DNA of 64,000 nucleotides, from NCBI GenBank assembly GCA_001543395.1, contig LPNG01000004.1, positions 1 through 64,000 of the forward strand, written 5' to 3'. Shown piece after piece: positions 36,896-49,018 of the stretch. Within the stretch, counting starts at the first letter, position 1; every line of letters starts with the position of its first letter. Below the pieces are notes generated by a model, which was given only the letters and a program-made list of their open reading frames with translations, ran no database searches and had not been told where the DNA came from. Position numbers and translations under genes: made by a program. Source of the DNA: Candidatus Alcium sp. F082. GTDB lineage: Bacteria; Bacteroidota; Bacteroidia; Bacteroidales; F082.

Positions 36896-39787
36896 ATGTC
36901 CGAAGAAACTAATTTTTCAATTCGATTGTCGAAAGCGGCAAAAGAATTCAATGTGGGAAAGGATACCATCGTAGAATTCCTTGGTAAGAAGGGATTCCAG
37001 GTGGACCCGTCTCCCAACACGAAGCTCACATCGGAGATGTATGAGCTGCTCGTGAAGGAATATCAGGGCGAGAAGGAAGTGAAGAATGAGGCCAAGAAAT
37101 TGGGTAACCTCTCCTATAAGGGTGGAAGTGTTTCCGTTGATTCGGCATTGCAATCGCAAAAGTCAGTTGAGGAAGAGGATCATGATGAAGTCATCATCCG
37201 CACCAACACGATATCTACGCCAGTGAAGAAATCGGGCAAGAGCCACGCTGCCTCTGAACCTGCCAAGGAGAAAGAGACGTCCAAGGAGGAAAAACCTGTG
37301 GCGAAGGAGCCTGCCGCTCAGCCTAAAAAGGAAGTGGAGAAGGGAGAACAAGGCGTACCCGGTATCTCGCTGAAGATTGTCGGTCAGATCGACTTGGAGA
37401 AAAAGCCCAAACAGGAAAAGAAGCCTAAGAGCGAACCTGAAAAGCCGGCCAAGCCGCAGGAGAAGCAACCCGAGGCTGAAGTGAAAAAGCCTGAGGAGGT
37501 TAAGAAGGCTCCCGTTGAGGCTGCTCCTGCACAAAAGGAACAACCAGCCGAAGAAAAGCTCGCTGAGCCTCGCCATATCAAATTGGAAGCGCCTAAGCTG
37601 ACAGGTCCCACCGTTTTGGGTACCTTGGAATTGCCTGTTGAGAAGAAAAACGGCAAAGCCGAAACGAAGAAGAAAAAGCGTAAGCGCATCATGGGCAAGC
37701 CCGAGGGTTCGTCAGAGGATCCCACTGGTGCCAACGTGAATAACGGTGGCAAGAAACAGGAAGGACAGAAGCCTGGCAAGGGCCCGCGTCCTGCCGACCA
37801 AGGTGCCAAGAAAGGCCCCAAGGACAGCCCTAAGCTTGGCAAGAAAGACAAGAAAGGCAAGCGCGAAGAGAAGCCTGAGCTGAGCGAAGAGGAGATCTCG
37901 AAGCAGATCAAGGACACCTTGGCACGTCTCGCCCCCATGGGTAAGTCGAAGACCTCCAAGCACCGCCGCGAGAAGCGTCAGCAGGTGGCGGGCAGCATGA
38001 TGGAGGAGATGATGCGTCAGGAAGAGGACAAGAAGGTGTTGAAGGTGACCGAGTTCGTCACGGCCAACGAGTTGGCGACGATGATGAACGTGCCTGTGGT
38101 GAAGGTCATCGGCACCTGCATGAGCCTCGGTATGCCTGTGTCCATCAACCAGCGTCTCGATGCTGAAGCCCTGACCGTGGTGGCCGAGGAATTCGGCTTC
38201 CAAGTCGACTTCGTCAGCGCCGACGTGCAAGAAGCCATAGCAGAGACTGATGAGGTCGATAAGGAAGAGGATCTCGTGCCTCGCGCCCCCGTCGTCACTG
38301 TCATGGGTCACGTCGACCATGGTAAGACCAAGCTCTTGGACTATATCCGTAACACCAACGTGGTGGCCGGTGAGGCAGGTGGTATCACCCAGCACATCGG
38401 TGCCTACGAGGTGACCACCGAGAGTGGCAAGAAGATCACCTTCTTGGATACGCCTGGTCACGAAGCCTTCACGGCTATGCGTGCCCGTGGTGCCAAGATC
38501 ACCGACGTCGCCATCATCGTCATCGCTACCGATGACAGCGTGATGCCTCAGACCGTCGAGGCCATCAACCACGCCCAAGCTGCTGGCGTGCCTATCGTCT
38601 TCGCTCTGAATAAGATCGATAAGCCCACCGCCAACCCCGACAAGATTCGCGAGCAACTTGCTAACATGAATATCCTCGTCGAGAGCTGGGGTGGTAAGTA
38701 CCAAGACCAGGAAATCGCCGCTAAGATCGGTTTGAACGTCGATGCACTGCTCGAAAAGGTGCTGCTTGAGGCCGAGCTCCTCGACCTGAAGGCTAACCCC
38801 AACCGTCTGGCTAAGGGTACGGTCATCGAGTCCGCTTTGGACAAGGGCCGTGGTTATGTGGCCAAGATCCTGGTGCAGAACGGCACCTTGAAGATTGGTG
38901 ATATGGTGCTTGCTGGCACCACCTATGGTAAGGTGAAGGCCATGTTCGACGACCACAACCGCCCCGTCAAGGAGGCTGGTCCTTCCACGCCGGTGCTGTT
39001 GCTGGGTTTGAACGGTGCTCCTATGCCGGGCGATGCCTTCAACGTAATGACCGACGAGCGCGAGGTGAAAGCCATCGCCAACCGCCGTGAACAGTTGCAA
39101 CGCGAACAGACACGCCGCACCAGTCCGCACATCACCTTGGATGAGATTGGCCGTCGTATCGCCATCGGCGACTTCAAGGAATTGAACATCATCGTCAAGG
39201 CCGACGTGGACGGCTCTGTGGAGGCTTTGGCCGACAGCTTGTTGAAGCTTTCTACCGAGGAGGTGCAGGTCAACGTCATCCACAAGTCGGTGGGTGCCAT
39301 TAGCGAGTCTGACGTCATGCTGGCTTCGGCATCCAATGCCGTCATCGTGGGCTTCAACGTGCGTCCTACTGCACAGGCGCGTAAGATGGCTGAGAACGAG
39401 AAGATTGATATCCGTCTGTACTCCATCATCTACACCGCCATCGAGGAAATCAAGGCCGCTATCGAAGGCATGTTGGCTCCCGAAATCGAAGAGGTGGTCA
39501 CCTGCAACCTCGAGATCCGCGAGACCTTCAAGATCAGCAAGGTCGGCACCATCGCTGGCTGTATGGTTTTGGACGGCAAGGTCACCCGCAACACCAAGGT
39601 CCGTGTCATCCGCGATGGCATCGTAATCTACACGGGTGTGCTCGGCTCCTTGAAGCGTTACAAAGACGATGTCAAGGAAGTCAGTGCCGGCATGGACTGC
39701 GGCTTGAACATCGAGAACTTCAACGACATCAAAGTCGGCGACATCATTGAAGGCTATACCGAGAAGGAAGTCGCTAGGAAGTTGTAA
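36896..39787 (+). CDS. infB: Translation initiation factor IF-2
   Basis: This 963-aa GTPase positions initiator tRNA on the 30S subunit. The N-terminal 430 residues are Lys/Glu/Pro-rich and low complexity, containing an IF2_N-type start ([19 protein letters not shown]). The GTPase has G1 [11 protein letters not shown]3 DTPGHEAF and G4 NKID. IF-2 domains 2-4 follow, ending with the C2 fMet-tRNA-binding domain. It is the last gene of the operon, with a terminator at 39806-39840. Confidence 0.97.
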
Positions 39788-39805
39788 ACGATAGTTTACT
39801 GAGTG

Positions 39806-39840
39806 ATAAAGCCTCGGCAACAAGTTTGTCGAGGCTTTAT
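39806..39840 (+). terminator. Terminator after infB
   Basis: ATAAAGCCTCG and CGAGGCTTTAT form an 11-bp perfect stem around a 13-nt loop. The T-tract is weak. It lies between convergent genes, so it may serve both. Confidence 0.75.
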
Positions 39841-39860
39841 GTGTAATTTGAATGGTGATA

Positions 39861-42413
39861 TTATAGCTTCGCAATCACCTTCAACATCTGCTCGCCCAAT
39901 CCGATCGTATAGCCCTGCTTCACAAACACCACCTCGCTGTTGGCGTTGGCGATGAGGAAGATGGGGCGACTGTCGGTGTTGAGGTGGAGTCCGTCAACGA
40001 TTTCGTTGCATATCTCACCTTCATCTATGCCGTAGACGATGCCTTCGGGCAATTCGCTGAAGTTCTTCATCTTGAACTTGTCGTAATCCTCTTTGCTGCT
40101 GAAGACGAAAATCATCGGTAGGTTGCTGTCTTCAAAGTCCTTGCGGAAGGCGGCGATGTCCTGCATGGCGTGGGTGGTGGGCTCGCTGCCTTGGTCCAAA
40201 AGGCCGAGGATGAAATACTCGTCTTGGATGAGTTGTTTGGCATTGCCCACTTCGCCCGTCTCAGGATCGGTGAATTTGCTGTCGGCATAGAAACTGCCGA
40301 TGACCTGTAACTCATTGTCAGGTTGGCGCAAAATGAGGTTCACATGGGTGGTTTCGCCCGCCTTGATGGTGAAAAACTCGCTGTGGGTCAGTGCGGTGCC
40401 GTCATCCAAGCGCGTGCCTGCCGTGAGGATGTAATAGCCTTCATCCAAAGGCGTGGGATGATCGAAGGTGGAAAGCATCATGCCATCGTCGATGCCAGGA
40501 TCTTTGGCATCATAGGCCAAGAGGCGGAAGCTTTGGCCATCGAACTTCTTGATGCTGAAGTGCGTGTAGTATTTCGGGTCGGACACGGAGGCGATGGGGA
40601 AATAATGGATGTCCAGATAGCCAATGGTAGTGCTAGTTGGCTCAGCGGCTTCAAAGTCCACATTAGTCCATTCCTTTCCGAAGTATTGCACATTGCCGTT
40701 CACGGGATTGATTTGTGCCGCGATGCCCAAACTGCGTGCCATGCTGACGAAGAAGATGTCACGGGAATGGCGGTCGGCCTTGCGAGCTTTCAGCACACCC
40801 AAAGATGAAATGGGAATGCGCTGTAAAGCCAGATTATCGTCGGCTTGTATGTTCTTTTTCACCCAATCGACCAATAAGGCAGGATTGTCATGGTATTGCC
40901 GTCTTTCCGCTTCAGGGAAGAACTCGGAAAGGGTCTTGCGGTAAGGCACAATCATTTCATTGCTCACGCGTGGATTGAGAATGTACTGAGCATAATGCTC
41001 AGGCGGCATGGAGATGATGGATTGCTCGAGACCAGGCGTGTTGTCGAGATGGTCTTTGAGTACTTCAAGGCTGACATCGCGCAAGTCTTTGTCGGAGATG
41101 TTGCTTAGAAGCTCCACGGCCTTGATCTCTTGGCCCTTGTCTTGGGCGTATTTCACGAAATCGGCGATGATCTGGTAGTTGCCCCACGTCTTTTCGTAGA
41201 TGCTGCACAGCTTTTTATTGCCCGTGTTCATAATCACATCCATCTGGGCTTTCTTGCATTCGGCGATGTAGGCGTTGCGCAGCGAGTCTTCAAAGGCTAT
41301 GCGACGGTCGTTTTCGGCACGCATCTCAGCCGTTACCTCGGGCAAGACGCTGGTCGGGGCGGGTGGAACCATATCGAACTCAAAGATGTCGTTTTGGCCC
41401 TGCTCATGGTCAAGGGTGATGGTGATGTTGTCTTTCTCGCCCGACTTGAACACTTGGAAACCGAATTTGCCGTCTTTGGCAGCGTAGGCCATCATGCAGC
41501 CCAAGCCAGAGGTAAGCCAGGTTTGGCCGTTCTCATCGGTCGTCTTCGTGACTACGGTGCAGAACTCGGCATAGTTGTAGATCTTGAACTCCACGGGCAG
41601 GTTGGCTTGCGGTTTGCCGTCAGTGTCCACCACGGTGAAAGTGGTCTTGGCAGCCTTTCCATAGTTGCCCACCACATTGATTTCCGTGTAGTTGGCACTG
41701 CGGCTGATGACTTCTTCGGGGCCGTCGTAGTCGCCGAAGACGCGGGTGTGTAATAACAAGGTGCGCGAGGCGGGCTCGTTGAACCAACCCAAGTCGAGGA
41801 CGGGCTCAGGCTCGCAGGCACCGAGGAAGTGCCATTGTCCGTCCACCCAAGCCTCTACCCAGGCGTGGTTGTCGTCGCAGTGGGCCCAACGAGGCGTGTA
41901 AACTTGTCTTGCTGGGATGCCCACGGTGCGTAAGGCGGTCACTAACAGTGTCGACTCTTCGCCGCAACGTCCCCACGAGGTCTTGATGGTGGCCATTGGA
42001 GCGCTGGTGCGGCTGTCGCTGCCCTTGTAGTTGACGTGCTCGTGGCACCAGTGGTTCACTTCGAGGATGGCGTCATATAAAGAGAGGTCTTTCACACGCG
42101 CTTTCAGCTCCTCGTAGTAGGTGGCACGGAAACGGTCGAGGTTCTCGTTGTTGACGCGAACGGGCACCACGAAATGCTTGAACTCGCGCTCGGGGACGCT
42201 GGCGCCCCAAGGCATCTCTTCTTTGGCCAGGAAGGCATAGTGGATGCACTCGCGGTAATAGTCTTCGGTGTAGTCTACGCTGTCGCCGAGCGGCATATAT
42301 TGGTAGAGGAACTGTAAGGCTTGTTTTTCGTTGAAGGTCGTTTCCTTTTCCGACGAGCAGGCCGAGAAGAACACTGCTGAAAGGATGGCAAAGGTAAGGA
42401 TGATGTTTTTCAT
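39861..42413 (-). CDS. Transglutaminase-domain lipoprotein
   Basis: This 850-aa lipoprotein (lipobox FSAC, Cys19) has a transglutaminase core: SWGRCGEESTLLVTALR (nucleophile Cys about 150), then DDNHAWVEAWVDGQW (His), with the acid shortly after. A carboxypeptidase-regulatory-like beta domain and a long helical region follow. The C-terminal part from about 750 looks thioredoxin-like but lacks a CxxC. Close relatives are widespread in gut Bacteroidetes without known function. A periplasmic peptidase or cross-linking role is possible. It is monocistronic, with a -7 box at 42431-42438. Confidence 0.85.
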   Translation of the reverse strand: MKNIILTFAILSAVFFSACSSEKETTFNEKQALQFLYQYMPLGDSVDYTEDYYRECIHYAFLAKEEMPWGASVPEREFKHFVVPVRVNNENLDRFRATYYEELKARVKDLSLYDAILEVNHWCHEHVNYKGSDSRTSAPMATIKTSWGRCGEESTLLVTALRTVGIPARQVYTPRWAHCDDNHAWVEAWVDGQWHFLGACEPEPVLDLGWFNEPASRTLLLHTRVFGDYDGPEEVISRSANYTEINVVGNYGKAAKTTFTVVDTDGKPQANLPVEFKIYNYAEFCTVVTKTTDENGQTWLTSGLGCMMAYAAKDGKFGFQVFKSGEKDNITITLDHEQGQNDIFEFDMVPPAPTSVLPEVTAEMRAENDRRIAFEDSLRNAYIAECKKAQMDVIMNTGNKKLCSIYEKTWGNYQIIADFVKYAQDKGQEIKAVELLSNISDKDLRDVSLEVLKDHLDNTPGLEQSIISMPPEHYAQYILNPRVSNEMIVPYRKTLSEFFPEAERRQYHDNPALLVDWVKKNIQADDNLALQRIPISSLGVLKARKADRHSRDIFFVSMARSLGIAAQINPVNGNVQYFGKEWTNVDFEAAEPTSTTIGYLDIHYFPIASVSDPKYYTHFSIKKFDGQSFRLLAYDAKDPGIDDGMMLSTFDHPTPLDEGYYILTAGTRLDDGTALTHSEFFTIKAGETTHVNLILRQPDNELQVIGSFYADSKFTDPETGEVGNAKQLIQDEYFILGLLDQGSEPTTHAMQDIAAFRKDFEDSNLPMIFVFSSKEDYDKFKMKNFSELPEGIVYGIDEGEICNEIVDGLHLNTDSRPIFLIANANSEVVFVKQGYTIGLGEQMLKVIAKL

Positions 42414-42430
42414 AGATGGATTATTTGCTG

Positions 42431-42438
42431 CAAAGATA
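42431..42438 (-). promoter_or_regulatory. -7 box for the transglutaminase lipoprotein gene
   Basis: TATCTTTG on the minus strand lies 18 nt upstream of the ATG. Confidence 0.65.
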
Positions 42439-42617
42439 GTGTTTATTTCAATCCTTCCGTCAGGAACTTCCGCAAATGGAGGTGGGTTTTGTCTCGAATA
42501 TTTCTTTTATAGAAGAAATTTTCTTGAAAAAGTTGAGATTCTTTTTTTATGGAAGAAAGAGTATTGGTGGAGAGATTGGTTTTCTGAATTTGTAATGCAA
42601 TTATCAGAAAAATACGC

Positions 42618-42625
42618 TATCTTTG
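42618..42625 (+). promoter_or_regulatory. -7 box at the start of the RNA/methyltransferase leader
   Basis: TATCTTTG matches TAnnTTTG. Transcription would start near 42630 and cross the structured region at 42710-42944 before the methyltransferase. A TTTG lies upstream, but at 25 nt instead of 19 nt. The stretch 42439-42617 holds no gene that I can support. Confidence 0.55.
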
Positions 42626-42709
42626 CGCCAAATAAAAACCAAACGTTTCGTAGAGATAAAAATAGAGAAGAAATAACATATTATAAACCAAAGCATTAGC
42701 TATTATTTC

Positions 42710-42882
42710 GCGTTTACCGAAAACCCTGCAAGATTAACGGAGATAAAACACGGAAATAATAAGTGAAGGTCTAACTGCAAGCAGATAGGCTTTTGTCCTG
42801 AAATAAGCAGATGCTCATACCCTAAGGGTGTGAGTACTTATTTTGGGCAGAGGTCTCCTTGCAGGGTTACCTTGGTAAGCGC
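42710..42882 (+). ncRNA. Structured RNA, rod-like fold; 6S-like or cis-regulatory
   Basis: A closing helix of 9 bp (42710-42718 with 42874-42882, one G-U) and an 11-bp perfect helix (42722-42732 with 42858-42868) bracket the region. GAGAT/GTCTC can extend it. The 5' side then bulges out over about 49 nt with a small hairpin at 771-788. The apical arm has three stacked helices: 794-798/845-849, 801-807/837-843 and 814-822/826-834, with loop TAA. One long rod with a central bulge is the 6S RNA architecture, but the bulge is one-sided. No protein gene fits this stretch. Riboswitch-like use is also possible, because GCGC at 42879-42882 is shared with the next hairpin. Confidence 0.6.
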
Positions 42883-42909
42883 AATAAGGAAAGCACCTTT
42901 CTTTTTGCG
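42880..42909 (+). promoter_or_regulatory. Hairpin competing with the closing helix of the RNA
   Basis: CGCAATAAGGAAAG and CTTTCTTTTTGCG pair over 13 bp with one bulged T and a CAC loop. The base of the stem uses the same GCG that closes the upstream RNA, so the two folds exclude each other. The T-run lies inside the stem and is followed by GCG, so it is at best a weak terminator. Confidence 0.55.
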
Positions 42910-42911
42910 TA

Positions 42912-42944
42912 GTGATTGATAGCCATGCAAAAACTGTCAATCAC
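42912..42944 (+). promoter_or_regulatory. Hairpin abutting the methyltransferase start codon
   Basis: GTGATTGATAG and CTGTCAATCAC pair over 11 bp (one G-U). The loop exposes an in-frame ATG at 42925. The preferred ATG at 42946 follows one base after the stem. This could modulate translation. Confidence 0.5.
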
Positions 42945-42945
42945 G

Positions 42946-43983
42946 ATGGCAAATGAAAATTTAAGGGCAGCTAATGTGGCTAAAAAGGACGAGTTCTATA
43001 CTCAACTTGTTGACATCGAGAACGAATTGAGGCATTACAAGGCACATTTTATGGGCAAAACGGTGCTGTGTAACTGTGATGACCCGCGTGTGAGCAACTT
43101 TTTCCACTATTTCAGCTACAACTTTGAGCAGTTAGGGCTTAAAAAACTCATCACCACTTGCTACAAAAACCAAAATCGCGACCTCTTCAGTCAAAACGAT
43201 GCCGAGCAAGCCATTTGGTTGGAATATTTCGGCGACCGCAACGGTAATCGTGTGCCCGACCCCGAAGAAATCGGTATCCACTATTTCAAAGGGGACGGCG
43301 ATTTCCGTTCCCAAGAGTGTATCGAGTTGCTGAAAGAAGCCGATATTGTGGTGACCAATCCGCCTTTCTCATTGTTTAGGGAATATGTAGCGCAATTGAT
43401 GAAGTATGAGAAGAAGTTTGTGATTGTTGGACATCAAAATGCTATTAGTTATAGAGAAATATTTCCTTTGATAAAAGATAATAGGATTTGGTTAGGTTAT
43501 GGTTTTAAGGGTGGGGCAGGACATTTTATCAGTAGGTATGAAGATAAGGCAACGGCCGGAGATCATCGAGAAGGTATGATTAGAGTTTCAGGTGTGAACT
43601 GGTTTACAAATTTGGAAATACAGAAGCGTCATGAAGATTTGATTATGTTCAAAAGATATAGTCCAGTTGAGTACCCGAAGTATGATAATGTTGATGCAAT
43701 TAATGTAGACAAAACTTCAGATATTCCGTTGGACTTTTTTGGAGTAATGGGAGTCCCAATAACCTTTTTGGACAAGTATAATCCTGATCAATTTGAAATC
43801 ATAGATGCAATAGGCAGGTATAGTATGATAGATGGTCCAACTCCTGAAACTCAAGGAAAATATCTTACTGATGTTAATGGACAACATAAATATGCCCGTA
43901 TCCTCATCCGTCGCAAGCAAAAGCCAATAAACTACGCTTCGATAGAACCGACGGTCTCGATGGCGGCGGAAGGAACTGAATAG
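42946..43983 (+). CDS. EcoRI-family adenine-specific DNA methyltransferase
   Basis: This 345-aa N6-adenine methyltransferase has the EcoRI-family start (MANENLRAANVAKKDEFYTQ), a cofactor-site-like segment VLCNCDDPRVSNF (40-52) and catalytic motif IV NPPF at 138-141. I start at ATG 42946 because homologues begin MANxNLxxA; an ATG at 42925 lies in a hairpin loop. From about codon 141 to 315 the codon use turns sharply A/T-rich, then returns to the local style, so the part likely to hold target recognition may have been exchanged. A DUF262-HNH nuclease gene follows 78 nt downstream, making a restriction-modification pair plausible. Confidence 0.88.
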   Translation: MANENLRAANVAKKDEFYTQLVDIENELRHYKAHFMGKTVLCNCDDPRVSNFFHYFSYNFEQLGLKKLITTCYKNQNRDLFSQNDAEQAIWLEYFGDRNGNRVPDPEEIGIHYFKGDGDFRSQECIELLKEADIVVTNPPFSLFREYVAQLMKYEKKFVIVGHQNAISYREIFPLIKDNRIWLGYGFKGGAGHFISRYEDKATAGDHREGMIRVSGVNWFTNLEIQKRHEDLIMFKRYSPVEYPKYDNVDAINVDKTSDIPLDFFGVMGVPITFLDKYNPDQFEIIDAIGRYSMIDGPTPETQGKYLTDVNGQHKYARILIRRKQKPINYASIEPTVSMAAEGTE

Positions 43984-43995
43984 AAGTAGTAGGCC

Positions 43996-44010
43996 CGTCC
44001 CGGAGGGACG
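43996..44010 (+). repeat. Short hairpin between methyltransferase and nuclease genes
   Basis: CGTCCC and GGGACG form a 6-bp stem around GGA in a GC-rich 75-nt gap. It resembles short dispersed palindromes of Bacteroidetes and could attenuate read-through. Confidence 0.5.
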
Positions 44011-44061
44011 ATACGCGACCTACGGCAGCACCCCGGCAGGATAACAAAACAACGATACAAT

Positions 44062-45153
44062 ATGAACATAGAACTACACAGAATCACCGTCCGCGAGCTG
44101 ACTAAAGGCTACGTGGACAACAACGAAAACGGCGTGCGCGCCTACGGTGGTCGCCTTGACGTGCGCCCGCCCTTCCAGCGCGAGTTCGTCTACAAGGAGA
44201 AACAGCGCGATGCCGTCATCGATACGCTCACCCAAGGCTTCCCGCTCAATGTGATGTATTGGGCTGTGCGCGACGACGACACCTTCGAGATCATCGACGG
44301 ACAGCAACGCACCATAAGCATCTGCCAATACGTCAACGGCGACTTCGCTTTCAACTTCCGCTATTTCCACAACCTCCAGCCCGACGAGCAAGAGCAAATC
44401 CTCAACTACGAGCTGCAAATCTACATCTGTAGCGGCACCGACAGCGAGAAGCTGAAGTGGTTTCGCACCATCAACATCGCGGGTGAGGCACTTACCGAGC
44501 AGGAGCTGCGCAACGCAGTGTATGCGGGCAGTTGGGTGAGCGACGCCAAACGCTATTTCAGCAAAAACGGTGCACCTGCCGCAAAAATCGGCTGTGACTA
44601 CCTCAACGGCTCTGCCATCCGTCAAGACTATCTTGAAACCGCCATCGACTGGATTTCGGATGGTAACATCGAGGTTTACATGTCAAACCACCAGCATGAT
44701 GCCAGTGCCGCACCGTTGTGGCAGTTTTTCCAGTCGGTCATCACTTGGATCGAGACCTCGTTCCGCCCAACCAAGGAACGCAAGAAAATCATGAAAGGCG
44801 TGGAGTGGGGGATGCTTTACAAGCAATACAAGGACCAGGTGTTTGACTGCAAAGCCATCGACGAAGAAGTGAAACGCCTCATCCTCGACGACGATGTAAC
44901 CAAAAAGACGGGCATCTATCCTTATATCCTCACACGCAAAGAGAAATACTTGTCGATTCGAGCCTTCACCGATGCGCAAAAACTGTCGGCCTACGAAAGG
45001 CAGATGGGCTTCTGCGCTGATTGCGGTCAACACTTCGAACTGTCACAAATGGAAGCCGACCACATCACACCGTGGTGCGATGGCGGCCGTACCATTGCCG
45101 ACAACTGTCAGATGCTCTGCAAGGAATGTAATAGACGGAAGAGTGGGAAATAA
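44062..45153 (+). CDS. DUF262-HNH protein, probable restriction nuclease
   Basis: This 363-aa protein has an N-terminal DUF262 (ParB/Srx-like NTPase) domain with PPFQR (36-40) and the diagnostic DGQQRT (79-84). A C-terminal HNH nuclease has CADC (318-321), DH at 333-334, N348 and CKEC (353-356), i.e. a zinc-stabilised beta-beta-alpha metal finger. DUF262 with a nuclease occurs in GmrSD and SspE, where DNA modification controls cutting. Next to an adenine methyltransferase, this is a natural cognate nuclease or a modification-gated one. The direction of control (cut modified or unmodified DNA) cannot be read from sequence. Confidence 0.85.
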   Translation: MNIELHRITVRELTKGYVDNNENGVRAYGGRLDVRPPFQREFVYKEKQRDAVIDTLTQGFPLNVMYWAVRDDDTFEIIDGQQRTISICQYVNGDFAFNFRYFHNLQPDEQEQILNYELQIYICSGTDSEKLKWFRTINIAGEALTEQELRNAVYAGSWVSDAKRYFSKNGAPAAKIGCDYLNGSAIRQDYLETAIDWISDGNIEVYMSNHQHDASAAPLWQFFQSVITWIETSFRPTKERKKIMKGVEWGMLYKQYKDQVFDCKAIDEEVKRLILDDDVTKKTGIYPYILTRKEKYLSIRAFTDAQKLSAYERQMGFCADCGQHFELSQMEADHITPWCDGGRTIADNCQMLCKECNRRKSGK

Positions 45154-45169
45154 ACTGCCAAAAGTCGGT

Positions 45170-45208
45170 TTACCACCCAAAATAGTGGTAAGCTTACCAC
45201 CTTTTTTA
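45170..45208 (+). terminator. GTGGTAAG-CTTACCAC palindrome, terminator after the nuclease gene
   Basis: A perfect 16-bp palindrome (45185-45200) is followed by C and six T residues, as in an intrinsic terminator. An extra TTACCACC at 45170-45177 can pair with the first arm as an alternative stem. The sequence is the same motif that recurs around fic. Confidence 0.7.
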
Positions 45209-45250
45209 GAAAAATAATGCGCTAATCCCATGCAATTCAGCAAAAATTTG

Positions 45251-45258
45251 TATTTTTG
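45251..45258 (+). promoter_or_regulatory. -7 box for fic
   Basis: TATTTTTG, 60 nt upstream of the fic ATG, with the GGTGGTAA palindrome starting 11 nt downstream. Confidence 0.65.
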
Positions 45259-45268
45259 TCGCCAAAAT

Positions 45269-45300
45269 GGTGGTAATGTTACCACCAAATTTGGTGGTAA
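45269..45300 (+). promoter_or_regulatory. Predicted operator of fic (GGTGGTAA boxes)
   Basis: GGTGGTAATGTTACCACC (45269-45286) is an inverted repeat of the 8-mer, and a third GGTGGTAA lies at 45293-45300. It sits about where transcription would start, which is a repressor position. The Fic protein itself has a C-terminal winged helix that could bind it. Confidence 0.6.
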
Positions 45301-45318
45301 ATGTAAATCTTTGTACTG

Positions 45319-46389
45319 ATGGAAGCAAAAAAACTGCAAGCAGCATTGGAGAAATGGAACGCCATTCAACCCTTGTCGGAGAAAGACCGAGAAAGGTTGA
45401 GTCGGAAGTTTTCCGTTGATTTCAACTATAACAGCAATCATATTGAAGGCAATACTCTGACATACGGTCAAACCGAATTGCTTTTGCTGTTCGGGAAGGT
45501 CATCGGTGAGGCTGATTTTCGGGAATATGAGGAGATGAAAGCGAGCAATGTGGGACTGAAAATGATGACCGTTGAGGCTGTCGACCAAGACAAGCCACTC
45601 ACTCAAAACTTTATTCGGACTCTGCATCGTACGTTGCTACGTGAGGATTACACTGTATATAGAACGCTCCCTGGGGGCGTGCAGACCAGTTATGTCATTC
45701 ATGCGGGGCAGTACAAAACCCGTCCTAACAGTGTAATTACTCGCTATGGTGACCGTTTCGACTATGCTTCTCCTGAGGAGACACCCGCTTTGATGACTGA
45801 CTTGGTTGATTGGTATAATCAAACGGAACAAAGCGGTACTTTGTCGCCTGCCGATTTGGCCATTTTATTTCACTATCGCTACATACGTATTCACCCGTTT
45901 GAGGATGGCAACGGACGCATAGCCCGACTTCTGATGAATTTCATCCTTTCAAGGCATGGTTATCCGATGGTTGTGGTGCGAAGTCGACAAAAGCAGCAAT
46001 ATCTTGAAGCCTTGCATCGCTCTGATTTGAAGGTGGGAAGTGAGCCGACGGTGGGTGCCAAAGCCACTATTAAGCAAATCAAGCCTTTCCAAAAGCACAT
46101 GACAGACCTCATGGCGCATGAGATAGAGATGGATACGCTTTTCGTGACGGAGAAATCGGAGGATTTGTGGTGGTATGACGGACAAAGAATCATGTTCCGC
46201 ACGCCTACCTACGGAAAAATCCTAAACGAATTGCTAACTGATAGTCATCCTACATACGCAACTTTGCAGGAAGCGACTGGGGTCAACCGCTCGGCTCTTC
46301 AGAAAATGATTCAAACCATGATTGAAAAGGGATATATCGAACGTGATGATGAGGGAGGCTGGCGCGTGTTTATCACTTCGTCAATGTAA
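45319..46389 (+). CDS. Fic family protein with C-terminal winged helix
   Basis: This 356-aa protein has the Fic core motif HPFEDGNGRIAR (192-203), so it should transfer AMP to protein hydroxyl groups. The inhibitory (S/T)xxxE(G/N) motif is present as SNHIEG (39-44), placing it with self-inhibited class II Fic proteins that carry the inhibitory helix N-terminally. Residues from about 285 form a winged helix (ATLQEATGVNRSALQKMIQ). The architecture resembles SoFic. No separate antitoxin gene is present, consistent with built-in inhibition. Palindromes on both sides suggest a self-contained, self-regulated unit. Confidence 0.92.
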   Translation: MEAKKLQAALEKWNAIQPLSEKDRERLSRKFSVDFNYNSNHIEGNTLTYGQTELLLLFGKVIGEADFREYEEMKASNVGLKMMTVEAVDQDKPLTQNFIRTLHRTLLREDYTVYRTLPGGVQTSYVIHAGQYKTRPNSVITRYGDRFDYASPEETPALMTDLVDWYNQTEQSGTLSPADLAILFHYRYIRIHPFEDGNGRIARLLMNFILSRHGYPMVVVRSRQKQQYLEALHRSDLKVGSEPTVGAKATIKQIKPFQKHMTDLMAHEIEMDTLFVTEKSEDLWWYDGQRIMFRTPTYGKILNELLTDSHPTYATLQEATGVNRSALQKMIQTMIEKGYIERDDEGGWRVFITSSM

Positions 46390-46390
46390 A

Positions 46391-46434
46391 AATGTTGAAA
46401 AAAGGTGGTAAACTTACCACCTTTTTTCAACATT
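46391..46434 (+). repeat. 44-nt near-perfect palindrome after fic
   Basis: Arms of 21 nt (46391-46411 and 46414-46434) are exact inverted copies separated by two bases (AC). The centre is the GGTGGTAA/TTACCACC motif and the flanks are AATGTTGAAAAAA and TTTTTTCAACATT. It starts one base after the fic stop. T- and A-tracts inside the arms make it a likely bidirectional terminator. The shared core suggests that it is also a protein site. Confidence 0.85.
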
Positions 46435-46507
46435 ATTTCTGGATTGCTTCGTTCCTCTCAATGACGCAAAGCGACGACAAGTCCCGTGTCCCGAAGTTCC
46501 ACATCCA

Positions 46508-47659
46508 CTAAACCATAAACTCTTCCAACGAGGAGAACAGAATCTCTTTCAGTTCCTCTTTGTGCTCGGGCGTGGTCTGCGTGAACAGGAATCCCCAGAT
46601 GCTCATGGCGGGGTTCATGATGTCGCGGGTCTCCAACACGCCATGGAAATGCCGCTTGATGCGCTCGAAGTCCAAGGCGCGGTTGGTGTCGTAGGGCTTG
46701 TCCAAGACGATGAAACTGAACACGTCGTTCTCGATGCCGTCCCACATGGTGGCATAGTCGGGGCGAATGCCTTCGAAATAGCACTGCACGGGCAACAGAT
46801 GGCAGGTGTGACGCGTCAGGTCGTTGAGGCACATGCCGGCGAAACGCAGCGGGTTGACTTCGATCGGGATGGCACGACCTGTGTTTTTGTCGACGCGGAA
46901 CTCCACGTGCATGGGGAAGTTCTTCAGTCCGAGCACGCCGTTCAGGTCGATGCAGAACTGGTTGAAGGCGGGATAGTTGGTCTCGAAGATCTGCTTGCTC
47001 ATGCAGTAGAGGCGGTCGCTCACATCGGTCTCGTTCTTGAAGATGTGGTGGAAGATGTTGATGATGTTGGGCTTGCCCTCGGCGTCATAATAGGCGTCCA
47101 CGGCATATTCCTCGCCTTCGATGAACTGTTCCAGCACGAACTTCTCGCTGCGCACCACGGTCTCAGGAAACACGGCGCATTGCTTGGCGAAGTTGTGGTC
47201 GATGTCGTCCAATGCGGCTTGCCATTCAGCCTTGTTGCGGACGATATACACGCCCACGCTGAGAAAACCGACTGCTGGTTTCAGCACCAATGGCAACGGC
47301 AACTCGTCAGGGTTGAGACTGCGCAAGGCCTTCATCTCCACCTCTTTGTAGTAGAAGTCGGGATAGATCTGCTGGCAGATGCGACGGAAAGCGGCCTTGT
47401 CCTTCAGGATCTTGACTTTTTTGACCAGCTCCGACTCGGGCAGCTGGGCATAGAGCCACACCAAGGCATTCTCAGAGACAGCATAGAGTTGGTTGGTTTG
47501 GTTGTATCTCTCAACGAACTGTTTGTCATCCAAAAGGTTGAGCTTGTGGCCTTGCTGCTTCAGCACCTCGGCCATGTCGTTATGCAAAACGGGGATTTGT
47601 TTCTCTTCCAGATAGGCCACCAACGGGGCGGAAACGTATGGTTTTTCTAAAATGATCAT
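46508..47659 (-). CDS. ATP-grasp domain protein
   Basis: This 383-aa ATP-grasp ligase has a nucleotide-binding region LVLKPAVGFLSVGVYIV and KFVLEQFIEGEEYAVDAYYD, and a metal site IPIEVNPLRFAG. The N-terminal preATP-grasp domain starts MIILEKPYVSAPLVAYLEEK. Family members join a carboxylate to an amine, thiol or similar group. The substrate is not predictable, and no biosynthetic partner genes are adjacent. It lies between the fic palindrome and the repeat at 47681-47710, then purA, all on the minus strand. Confidence 0.85.
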   Translation of the reverse strand: MIILEKPYVSAPLVAYLEEKQIPVLHNDMAEVLKQQGHKLNLLDDKQFVERYNQTNQLYAVSENALVWLYAQLPESELVKKVKILKDKAAFRRICQQIYPDFYYKEVEMKALRSLNPDELPLPLVLKPAVGFLSVGVYIVRNKAEWQAALDDIDHNFAKQCAVFPETVVRSEKFVLEQFIEGEEYAVDAYYDAEGKPNIINIFHHIFKNETDVSDRLYCMSKQIFETNYPAFNQFCIDLNGVLGLKNFPMHVEFRVDKNTGRAIPIEVNPLRFAGMCLNDLTRHTCHLLPVQCYFEGIRPDYATMWDGIENDVFSFIVLDKPYDTNRALDFERIKRHFHGVLETRDIMNPAMSIWGFLFTQTTPEHKEELKEILFSSLEEFMV

Positions 47660-47680
47660 GGTTTGTGTTTTGCGTTGTGT

Positions 47681-47710
47681 TGTAAAGACGTTGCGCGCAA
47701 CGTCTCTACA
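47681..47710 (+). repeat. Palindromic repeat between ATP-grasp gene and purA
   Basis: TGTAAAGACGTTGCG and CGCAACGTCTCTACA pair at 14 of 15 positions with no loop. It is a self-complementary 30-mer of the GTAGAGACGTTGC type that I recall from other bacterial genomes. Confidence 0.8.
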
Positions 47711-47718
47711 GGGTCGGT

Positions 47719-48996
47719 TTATCTAATAATATTCTGTGTTCTGTCCGGTCCGTACGAAACGAATTTGATCGGCACGCCGACGTAATTCTCAATGAATTTG
47801 ATGTAATCTTCTAATTTCTGTGGAATCTTGCCTTCTATCTTCTGTTGCCATCCAGGGATTTCGGTATAGACGGGCTCCATGGTCTCGGTGCAGGCAGCGA
47901 AAGGCAGGTGTTTGGTCTCTTGTCCGTTGTAGCGGTAGGCCGTGGCGACTTTCAGGGTGGCGAAGTCATCCATGACATCAGATTTCATCATCATCAGGTC
48001 GGTGACACCGCTGAGCATGACGGCATATTTCAATGCGGGCAGGTCAAGCCAGCCGCAACGGCGCGGACGACCCGTGGTGGCACCAAACTCATGCCCGTTC
48101 TGGCGAAGCATCTCGCCCGTCTCGTCAAACAACTCGGTGGGGAAGGGGCCAGTACCCACGCGCGTGCAGTAAGCCTTGAAGATGCCATACACCTTGCCCA
48201 CACGGCTCGGGGCAACGCCTAAGCCGGAGCAAACACCAGCAGCGATGACATTGGATGAGGTCACGAAAGGATAGCTGCCGAAATCCACATCGAGCATGGA
48301 GCCTTGGGCACCTTCGGCCAGCACTTTTTTGCCGTTGTCAAGGGCGTCGTTGATGAAATACTCGCCCTCGACGAACTGGTATTGCTTCAGGTATTCGATG
48401 CCCTCGAACCACAACTTCTCGTACTCGGCGAAGTCGAGGCCGTCGAGTTGGAAGCCTTGCATCTCAAAGCCGAGGCCGGCGATTTGCTGCAGGTGGGCCT
48501 TCTTCAGGTTCTCGTATTTCTCGCGGAAGTCGGCAGCATTGATGTCGCCGATGCGGAGGCCTCTACGGGCGGTCTTGTCGGTATAGGTCGGGCCGATGCC
48601 TTTCAGCGTGGTGCCGACTTTCATCTTGCCCAAAGCCTTCTCGTTGGCGGCATCCATGGCGCGGTGGGAGGGCAGGATGAGATGGGCGCGGTTGGCGATC
48701 ATCAAGGTTTTACGTAAGTCGAAGCCAGCCTCGCGCAGGCCTTCGATCTCACCTTTTAATATATGCGGCTCGATGATGACGCCGTTGCCGATGAGGTTGA
48801 TGCAACCCGGGGTGAGCACGCCCGATGGGATGTTGTGCAACACGAATTTCTTGCCTTCAAACTCAATGGTATGACCAGCGTTGGGACCGCCTTGGAAGCG
48901 GCAAACGATGTCATAATTCGGGGTGAGGGCGTCGACCACCTTGCCTTTGCCTTCATCGCCCCATTGTAAACCTAAAAGAATGTCTATTTTATTCAT
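47719..48996 (-). CDS. purA: Adenylosuccinate synthetase
   Basis: This 425-aa enzyme makes adenylosuccinate from IMP, aspartate and GTP. Motifs are GLQWGDEGKGKVVD at the N terminus (P-loop and catalytic Asp), GPNAGHTIEFEGKKFVLHNI, GIGPTYTDKTARRGLRIGD and TRVGTGPFPTE. The length is normal. It lies downstream of fur, with a heptamer repeat filling the gap. Confidence 0.97.
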   Translation of the reverse strand: MNKIDILLGLQWGDEGKGKVVDALTPNYDIVCRFQGGPNAGHTIEFEGKKFVLHNIPSGVLTPGCINLIGNGVIIEPHILKGEIEGLREAGFDLRKTLMIANRAHLILPSHRAMDAANEKALGKMKVGTTLKGIGPTYTDKTARRGLRIGDINAADFREKYENLKKAHLQQIAGLGFEMQGFQLDGLDFAEYEKLWFEGIEYLKQYQFVEGEYFINDALDNGKKVLAEGAQGSMLDVDFGSYPFVTSSNVIAAGVCSGLGVAPSRVGKVYGIFKAYCTRVGTGPFPTELFDETGEMLRQNGHEFGATTGRPRRCGWLDLPALKYAVMLSGVTDLMMMKSDVMDDFATLKVATAYRYNGQETKHLPFAACTETMEPVYTEIPGWQQKIEGKIPQKLEDYIKFIENYVGVPIKFVSYGPDRTQNIIR

Positions 48997-49018
48997 TATA
49001 AATATTTTATCTATTATT

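What the first reader, a model, noticed from the sequence alone, without database searches (positions are those of the whole stretch)
45170..46434. GGTGGTAA palindromes bracket a Fic gene with its own winged helix
The 8-mer GGTGGTAA and its complement occur as inverted pairs at 45170-45200, 45269-45300 and 46404-46421, that is before, at the promoter of, and just after fic, and I noticed no comparable cluster elsewhere in the window. The promoter copy sits at the expected transcription start. The simplest reading is that Fic represses itself through its C-terminal domain and that AMPylation state may set DNA binding.
Basis: partly seen in the sequence, partly recalled or inferred. Interest (0 to 1): 0.72.

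Follow-up and report, generated by a model that had tools for sequence, protein, structure and literature searches.

The report
Self-repressing Fic enzyme and its operator
A Bacteroidales-type bacterium carries a gene for a Fic enzyme, of a kind that tags proteins with AMP, which most likely shuts off its own promoter through a small DNA-binding tail; near-copies of the binding site persist in relatives where the gene is missing, probably as traces of its loss.

Summary
The palindromes are real. The promoter copy (site 2, 45269-45300) is best read as the operator of the adjacent fic gene, bound by Fic's own C-terminal winged helix. In 115 non-redundant homologous loci, 42 of 42 Fic proteins with Ser just before the recognition helix face GGTT-type palindromes. 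Of 58 with Asn there, 50 face GGTG-type palindromes and none the other type. Of 14 Fic genes without this domain, 13 have none and one shows a chance-like match. The switch is one evolutionary event. The operator keeps a fixed distance from the predicted -7 box, and the Ser-type operator occurs once per genome, at fic, in 6 of 6 genomes. Autorepression by a Fic/winged-helix protein is already shown for Yersinia CccR, so the principle is known; operator layout, family and spread are new here.

The bracketing copies are something else. Site 3 is the core of a terminator-like hairpin beside the ATP-grasp gene, and the palindrome, exact or slightly changed, persists in 19 stretches without fic. 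Two of these join the site-3 and site-1 flanks around one copy, as if fic had been deleted between them. Control of DNA binding by AMPylation state is untested.

The parts
45319..46389 (+). fic, 356 aa: class II Fic protein with C-terminal winged helix
   Evidence: Pfam Fic 93-210 (73.8 bits, cut-off 24), HTH_24 300-341 (27.0, cut-off 21.9)
45433..45450 (+). inhibitory-helix motif S39-NHI-E43-G44, N-terminal to the Fic motif (class II)
   Evidence: S39, E43, G44 invariant (9 sequences; 25 sequences)
45892..45927 (+). Fic motif HPFEDGNGRIAR, residues 192-203
   Evidence: invariant columns
46204..46368 (+). winged helix-turn-helix, residues 296-350; recognition helix 324-337 preceded by N323
   Evidence: AlphaFold2 model H296-307 H313-320 H324-337 E340-342 E348-350, block pLDDT 84-93
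45251..45258 (+). predicted -7 box TATTTTTG (TAnnTTTG)
   Evidence: sequence; consensus from a PMC7366714 passage; begins 27 bp before the operator centre, the modal distance
45269..45300 (+). site 2, operator GGTGGTAA-N2-TTACCACC-N6-GGTGGTAA at the fic promoter
   Evidence: conserved at orthologous promoters
45170..45201 (-). site 1, the same three-half-site design inverted, between the HNH gene and the fic promoter; followed by a T run
   Evidence: also in L028-L030 and L189, L192, L201
46391..46434 (.). site 3, terminator-like hairpin with GGTGGTAA-N2-TTACCACC (46404-46421) at its tip, between convergent fic and ATP-grasp genes
   Evidence: RNA fold -28.1 and -27.6 kcal/mol on the two strands, z -8.7 and -8.4; outer arms paired in 5 fic-bearing loci
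46508..47659 (-). ATP-grasp gene that site 3 adjoins
   Evidence: Pfam ATP-grasp_4; loci
44062..45153 (+). GmrSD_N + HNH protein (matches a PADLOC type II restriction enzyme model), ends just before site 1
42916..43983 (+). EcoRI-type adenine methyltransferase gene of the same cassette
   Evidence: Pfam EcoRI_methylase 452.7 bits

Best explanation
The fic gene encodes a class II Fic enzyme whose C-terminal winged helix is a dedicated repressor of its own promoter. A dimer most likely reads GGTGGTAA-N2-TTACCACC (half-sites about one helical turn apart) just downstream of the -7 box, a further subunit reads the third half-site six bases on, and initiation or early elongation is blocked, keeping the enzyme scarce. 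Shown by comparison: conserved operator, position, specificity switch, near-uniqueness in the genomes searched. Inferred: binding, dimer state, repression. Sites 1 and 3 are extra copies: site 3 probably forms the bidirectional terminator between fic and the ATP-grasp gene, and sites 1 and 3 probably served as repeats between which fic was lost in related genomes. Whether Fic also binds sites 1 and 3 is open.
For: Operator at orthologous promoters, 115 non-redundant loci: Asn323 class 50 of 58 with G at half-site base 4 on both sides (3 of the other 8 keep GTGGTA-N4-TACCAC), Ser323 class 42 of 42 with T; of 15 without an alignable domain 13 have none. Residue 323 stands directly before the recognition helix 324-337. 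Before removal of 3 duplicates, 51 Asn-class loci have a palindrome; 44 of them have a TAnnTTTG and in 41 the nearest begins 24-28 bp before the operator centre; of 44 Ser-class loci 43 have it and in 42 it begins 24-28 bp after the centre. Third half-site at exactly N6 on the fic side in 35 of 59 Asn-class loci. The Ser-type operator occurs once, at fic, in each of 6 Ser-type genomes searched. In 80 genomes of the genus GGTGGTANNNNTACCACC has 29 places: 8 before fic, 3 after fic, 2 at fic relics, 15 beside the ATP-grasp gene without fic there, 1 inside an unrelated open frame. CccR precedent.
Against: No binding or expression data. The Asn/Ser switch is a single event on the tree (1 independent pair), so the association is one concordant change plus descent. 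Five of 58 Asn-class loci (L014, L015, L019, L119, L120) lack a palindrome; L014 and L120 keep single half-sites. Palindrome scores alone barely exceed shuffles: 29 of 102 wHTH loci, and 0 of 15 others, had at most 5 of 100 shuffles as good. The looser pattern RGTGGTANNNNTACCACY was no commoner than its reversed control in 7 of 11 genomes. Site 2 also folds well as RNA (-20.1 kcal/mol, z -4.8), so a role in the transcript is not excluded for this type.
Confidence: 0.83

Rival explanations
1. Another regulator, not Fic, binds the palindromes at the fic promoter.
For: No direct binding evidence for Fic; palindromes also stand beside the ATP-grasp gene without fic.
Against: The half-site differs with Fic's own recognition helix and is missing before Fic genes without that domain (13 of 14, the fourteenth chance-like); in 6 of 6 Ser-type genomes the operator occurs only at fic.
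Confidence: 0.08
2. The palindromes act as RNA hairpins only: terminators at sites 1 and 3, and a leader structure at site 2.
For: Site 3 is a strong hairpin with T runs on both strands; site 2 folds at z -4.8 and site 1 at z -3.3; site 3's palindrome persists without fic.
Against: In the Ser type the operator lies upstream of the predicted -7 box in all 43 loci with such a box (24-28 bp in 42, 17 in one), so it would not be transcribed; the half-site follows the recognition helix.
Confidence: 0.05
3. Sites 1 and 3 are auxiliary operators that Fic links to site 2 by looping, giving tighter repression.
For: Same half-sites and spacings as site 2; second palindromes occur near fic in a few other loci, e.g. 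L049, L055, L061.
Against: A copy after fic is seen only in L007, L028-L030, L049 and L055 in the scan; the palindrome remains where fic is gone.
Confidence: 0.25
4. The palindrome beside the ATP-grasp gene came first and fic inserted there by homology, rather than fic leaving it behind.
For: Stretches with the palindrome and no fic outnumber those with fic, 19 to 5.
Against: Fic-less loci such as L182 and L176 keep the outer left arm (ATGTTGGCTAAAAGG) without the right arm that completes it in fic-bearing L190; L195 keeps both outer arms around a damaged core; none of the 24 stretches without the palindrome has fic.
Confidence: 0.2

Closest known systems
CccR, Yersinia pseudotuberculosis (PMC9755527; abstract, passages and part 1 of 2 of section 10 seen)
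   Same: Class II Fic domain plus C-terminal HTH that represses its own promoter through inverted repeats.
   Different: CccR's 10-bp repeats are N26 apart; here 8-bp half-sites at N2 with a third at N6. CccR is a secreted T6SS effector; secretion was not examined here. PDB 7xux, which I take from recall to be CccR, matches at 17% identity.
CbFic2, Coxiella burnetii (PMC10628234; passages seen)
   Same: Class II Fic with C-terminal wHTH that binds DNA.
   Different: Random DNA was used there and no specific operator is given in the passages seen; DNA binding is proposed to switch AMPylation to deAMPylation; 15% identity by Foldseek (8cil).
SoFic/Sofic anti-phage Fic (PMC12249575; abstract and passages seen)
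   Same: Class II Fic with a C-terminal domain; PADLOC SoFic model matches residues 6-352 at E 1.7e-27, behind PDC-S04 at 3.1e-33.
   Different: NCBIfam SoFic equivalog scores 29.1 bits against a cut-off of 550; DNA binding by SoFic undemonstrated as of PMC10628234 (2023).
BT_2513, Bacteroides thetaiotaomicron (PDB 3cuc)
   Same: Nearest solved structure; phmmer 1.4e-97 over residues 7-269, 51% identity by Foldseek.
   Different: The 291-residue chain matches nothing of the winged helix part in the phmmer alignment.

Membership tests
Fic family (PF02661) | Fic domain above Pfam cut-off with HPFx[D/E]GN[G/K]R motif | tested here: met
   73.8 bits vs 24; HPFEDGNGRIAR invariant; motif as in the PMC2686095 abstract
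Class II Fic | inhibitory helix motif N-terminal to the Fic motif | tested here: met
   S39, E43, G44 invariant in 9 and 25 sequences; class definition from a PMC9755527 passage
Fic with winged helix (CccR-like autorepressor) | C-terminal winged helix | tested here: met
   HTH_24 27.0 bits vs 21.9; model helices and wing
Fic with winged helix (CccR-like autorepressor) | inverted-repeat operator at own promoter | tested here: met
   (sequence only)
Fic with winged helix (CccR-like autorepressor) | protein binds the operator and represses | not testable with these tools
   needs gel shift and reporter
CccR itself | 10-bp repeats separated by N26 | tested here: not met
   8-bp half-sites at N2 and N6
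SoFic equivalog (NF046030) | score above curated cut-off of 550 bits | tested here: not met
   29.1 bits
SoFic anti-phage system | protects against phage | not testable with these tools
   PADLOC match only

The most novel reading that the evidence does not exclude
Fic's operator palindromes double as recombination repeats: site 1 and site 3 allow clean deletion, and perhaps gain, of a self-repressed enzyme gene in a small defence hotspot, so that a scar carrying a working Fic binding site is left behind that could repress a later incoming fic at once.
Probability: 0.35. Interest if true: 0.65.

Novelty: new variant of a known kind. Interest (0 to 1): 0.5.

Why it matters
It gives a predicted operator for a widespread Bacteroidales Fic family with a ready specificity test (Asn or Ser 323 against half-site base 4), which would show how a possibly toxic AMP-transferring enzyme can be kept in check without a separate antitoxin. 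The palindromes beside the ATP-grasp gene offer a record of gain and loss of one such gene across a genus.

Tried and rejected
Best-palindrome score against shuffles was too weak a test on AT-rich promoters; the half-site table in that call also had an indexing error and was replaced. The covariation first looked like strong statistics; the tree showed one event. L018 was counted with the domain-less genes by the script, but it is cut by its contig end and does show GGTGGTA half-sites, so I count 14, not 15, clean negatives. Viral contigs: 221 stretches matched a pattern, none confirmed. Phages: no match at 1e-20. Plasmids: one 57% homologue at 1e-40, with another recognition helix, behind a recombinase gene, no GGTGGTA or GGTTGTA palindrome in 5.8 kb. 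Of 395 genomes of the phylum 4, the own genome included, have a match at 1e-90. Rfam: no match over 38000-49000. Paper searches in the open PubMed Central library only: none at 4 of 6 terms; listings; CccR, CbFic2, Sofic and the Fido paper came from these; 10 listed of 1,133 holding any of the terms, none about Fic; no report of this operator was seen.

Full report
OBSERVATION. GGTGGTAA and its complement occur 9 times in 64 kb where 1.01 is expected; 7 lie in 1.25 kb around fic. In the 2.36-Mb assembly, 72% complete, the 18-bp palindrome has no place with 2 or fewer mismatches other than these three.

THE PROTEIN. [quoted passage not shown] HPFEDGNGRIAR and the class II residues S39, E43 and G44 are invariant in 9 and in 25 chosen homologues. 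An AlphaFold2 model (mean pLDDT 75.7; C-terminal blocks 84-93, residues 38-74 under 50) shows helices 296-307, 313-320 and 324-337 followed by two wing strands. N323 stands directly before the recognition helix. The nearest solved structure is BT_2513, whose 291-residue chain matches residues 7-269 only; Fic proteins with a C-terminal HTH (8cil, 7xux, 3eqx; 7xux from recall) match at 14-17% identity.

ORTHOLOGOUS PROMOTERS. Of 120 loci, L020 and L125 were dropped for lack of upstream sequence; 118 were counted, 115 after removing three exact duplicates. Residue 323 is Asn in 58, Ser in 42, and no winged helix aligns in 15. Within 170 bp upstream to 9 bp inside the gene, the best palindrome passing the rule has G at half-site base 4 in 50 of 58 Asn loci and T in 42 of 42 Ser loci; never the other way. 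Base 4 was left free by the rule. Of the 8 Asn loci without one, L057, L058 and L065 keep GTGGTA-N4-TACCAC, L014 and L120 keep single half-sites, and L015, L019 and L119 have none of the searched half-sites. Of the 15 others, 13 have none; L025 passes by a chance-like match; L018 passes by one too but is cut by its contig end, so its domain is unknown, and it shows GGTGGTA half-sites by eye. That leaves 14 clean negatives. At 90% protein clustering the counts are 33 of 39 Asn and 9 of 9 Ser.

LIMIT OF THE COVARIATION. On a tree of the Fic domain alone (290 columns, 108 rows, quick method) the Ser class is one group (support 82) beside the Asn-type L093 (89), and only one independent pair exists. 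Helix and half-site changed together once. A repressor reading its own operator predicts this, but it is one event.

POSITION. With TAnnTTTG as the -7 consensus of Bacteroides (PMC7366714, one passage seen), 44 of 51 Asn-type loci with a palindrome have such a box; in 41 the nearest begins 24-28 bp before the operator centre, 27 bp in 29 of them and in the window. In the Ser type 43 of 44 have it; in 42 it begins 24-28 bp after the centre (these counts include the three duplicates). So the operator lies just past the expected start in one type and, by inference, over the -33 region in the other: two ways to block a promoter. Site 2's third half-site at N6 recurs on the fic side in 35 of 59 Asn-type loci. 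As RNA, site 2 also folds (-20.1 kcal/mol, z -4.8), but the Ser-type operator would not be transcribed, which speaks for DNA.

SPECIFICITY. GGTTRTANNNNTAYAACC occurs exactly once in each of 6 Ser-type genomes chosen, always just before fic. In 11 Asn-type genomes chosen because they have fic, every RGTGGTANNNNTACCACY place is at fic or at the ATP-grasp side of fic, though the reversed control is as frequent or more so in 7 of them. In 80 genomes of the genus GGTGGTANNNNTACCACC has 29 places in 25 genomes: 8 before fic, 3 after fic, 2 at fic relics (L141, L142), 15 beside the ATP-grasp gene without fic there, and 1 inside an unrelated open frame. No other target gene is suggested, so Fic looks like a dedicated autorepressor.

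SITES 1 AND 3. This reverse search changed the reading of the bracket. I mapped 47 stretches beside the ATP-grasp gene (47 of the 64 other genomes with a match; up to about 9 kb or to the contig end) plus the window. The palindrome is present in 24 of 48: 5 with fic (window, L189, L190, L192, L201), 4 with methylase and HNH genes but no fic, 10 with the lipoprotein gene within 300 bp, 5 with other spacing. Of the 19 without fic, 15 are exact GGTGGTA-N4-TACCACC and 4 (L176, L180, L191, L195) are changed. None of the 24 stretches without it has fic. Where fic is present the 12 positions outside the core pair at 11-12, although the arm sequence differs between the window, L189/L190/L192 and L201; where it is absent they pair at 4-9. 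So site 3 looks like a maintained two-way terminator between convergent genes, and fic-less loci such as L182 and L176 keep its outer left arm with no partner, which points to loss of fic. L181 and L176, with methylase and HNH genes but no fic, show the site-3 flank on one side and the site-1 flank on the other side of a single palindrome: what recombination between sites 1 and 3 would leave. The order of events is inference; entry of fic at an existing palindrome is not excluded.

MECHANISM. Most likely a Fic dimer binds site 2, blocks the promoter and holds its own level low, so that the class II inhibitory helix and low dose together keep the enzyme safe. Comparison supports the operator and who reads it; binding and repression are inferred. 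What releases it is unknown. The idea that AMPylation state sets DNA binding has no support here; for CccR the authors describe the two activities as independent, while for CbFic2 DNA binding is reported to change enzyme activity, so coupling in that direction is also worth testing.

KNOWN AND NEW. The 2009 Fido paper proposed that HTH domains fused to Fic may regulate fic expression (PMC2686095, passages), and CccR showed it with lacZ, gel shift and footprint (PMC9755527). New here, as far as the searches reach, are this operator, its layout, its spread in Bacteroidales, the single specificity switch and the traces of fic loss.

Noticed in passing
42715-42885 +: Strongly structured RNA-like element (-67 kcal/mol, z -6.4) before the methylase gene; no Rfam match. 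Among the loci searched it is similar over its length only in L184 (89%) and L030/L192 (80%, the same place); about 75 nt match in L028, L029 and L189.
   Followed up: partly
42916-45153: The EcoRI-type methylase and GmrSD_N-HNH cassette is mosaic: in 8 of 9 other loci where both were matched the HNH protein is 91-98% identical while the methylase is 46-80%; the ninth (L181) has 57% and 42%.
   Followed up: partly
L141 1501-1643; L142 1498-1667: Fic relics: an operator followed by a 37-codon winged-helix stub, and a C-terminal fic fragment with palindromes after it.
   Followed up: partly
L121-L124, L126: Fic paralogues of about 450-470 codons in the same genus with another C-terminal part and no such palindrome upstream.
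   Followed up: partly
L177, L178, L184, L191, after the palindrome beside the ATP-grasp gene: An 83-aa gene (M[SG]RT[VI]TASIGPHYE...) with its own palindrome TGTAAGAAATATTCTTAC[AT] at the promoter occupies the same spot; looks like a ParD-type antitoxin (from recall, not searched).
   Followed up: partly
L226 1865-3562: Segatella copri plasmid: fic homologue (57%) directly behind a recombinase gene, recognition helix region IVVTA, no GGTGGTA or GGTTGTA palindrome.
   Followed up: partly
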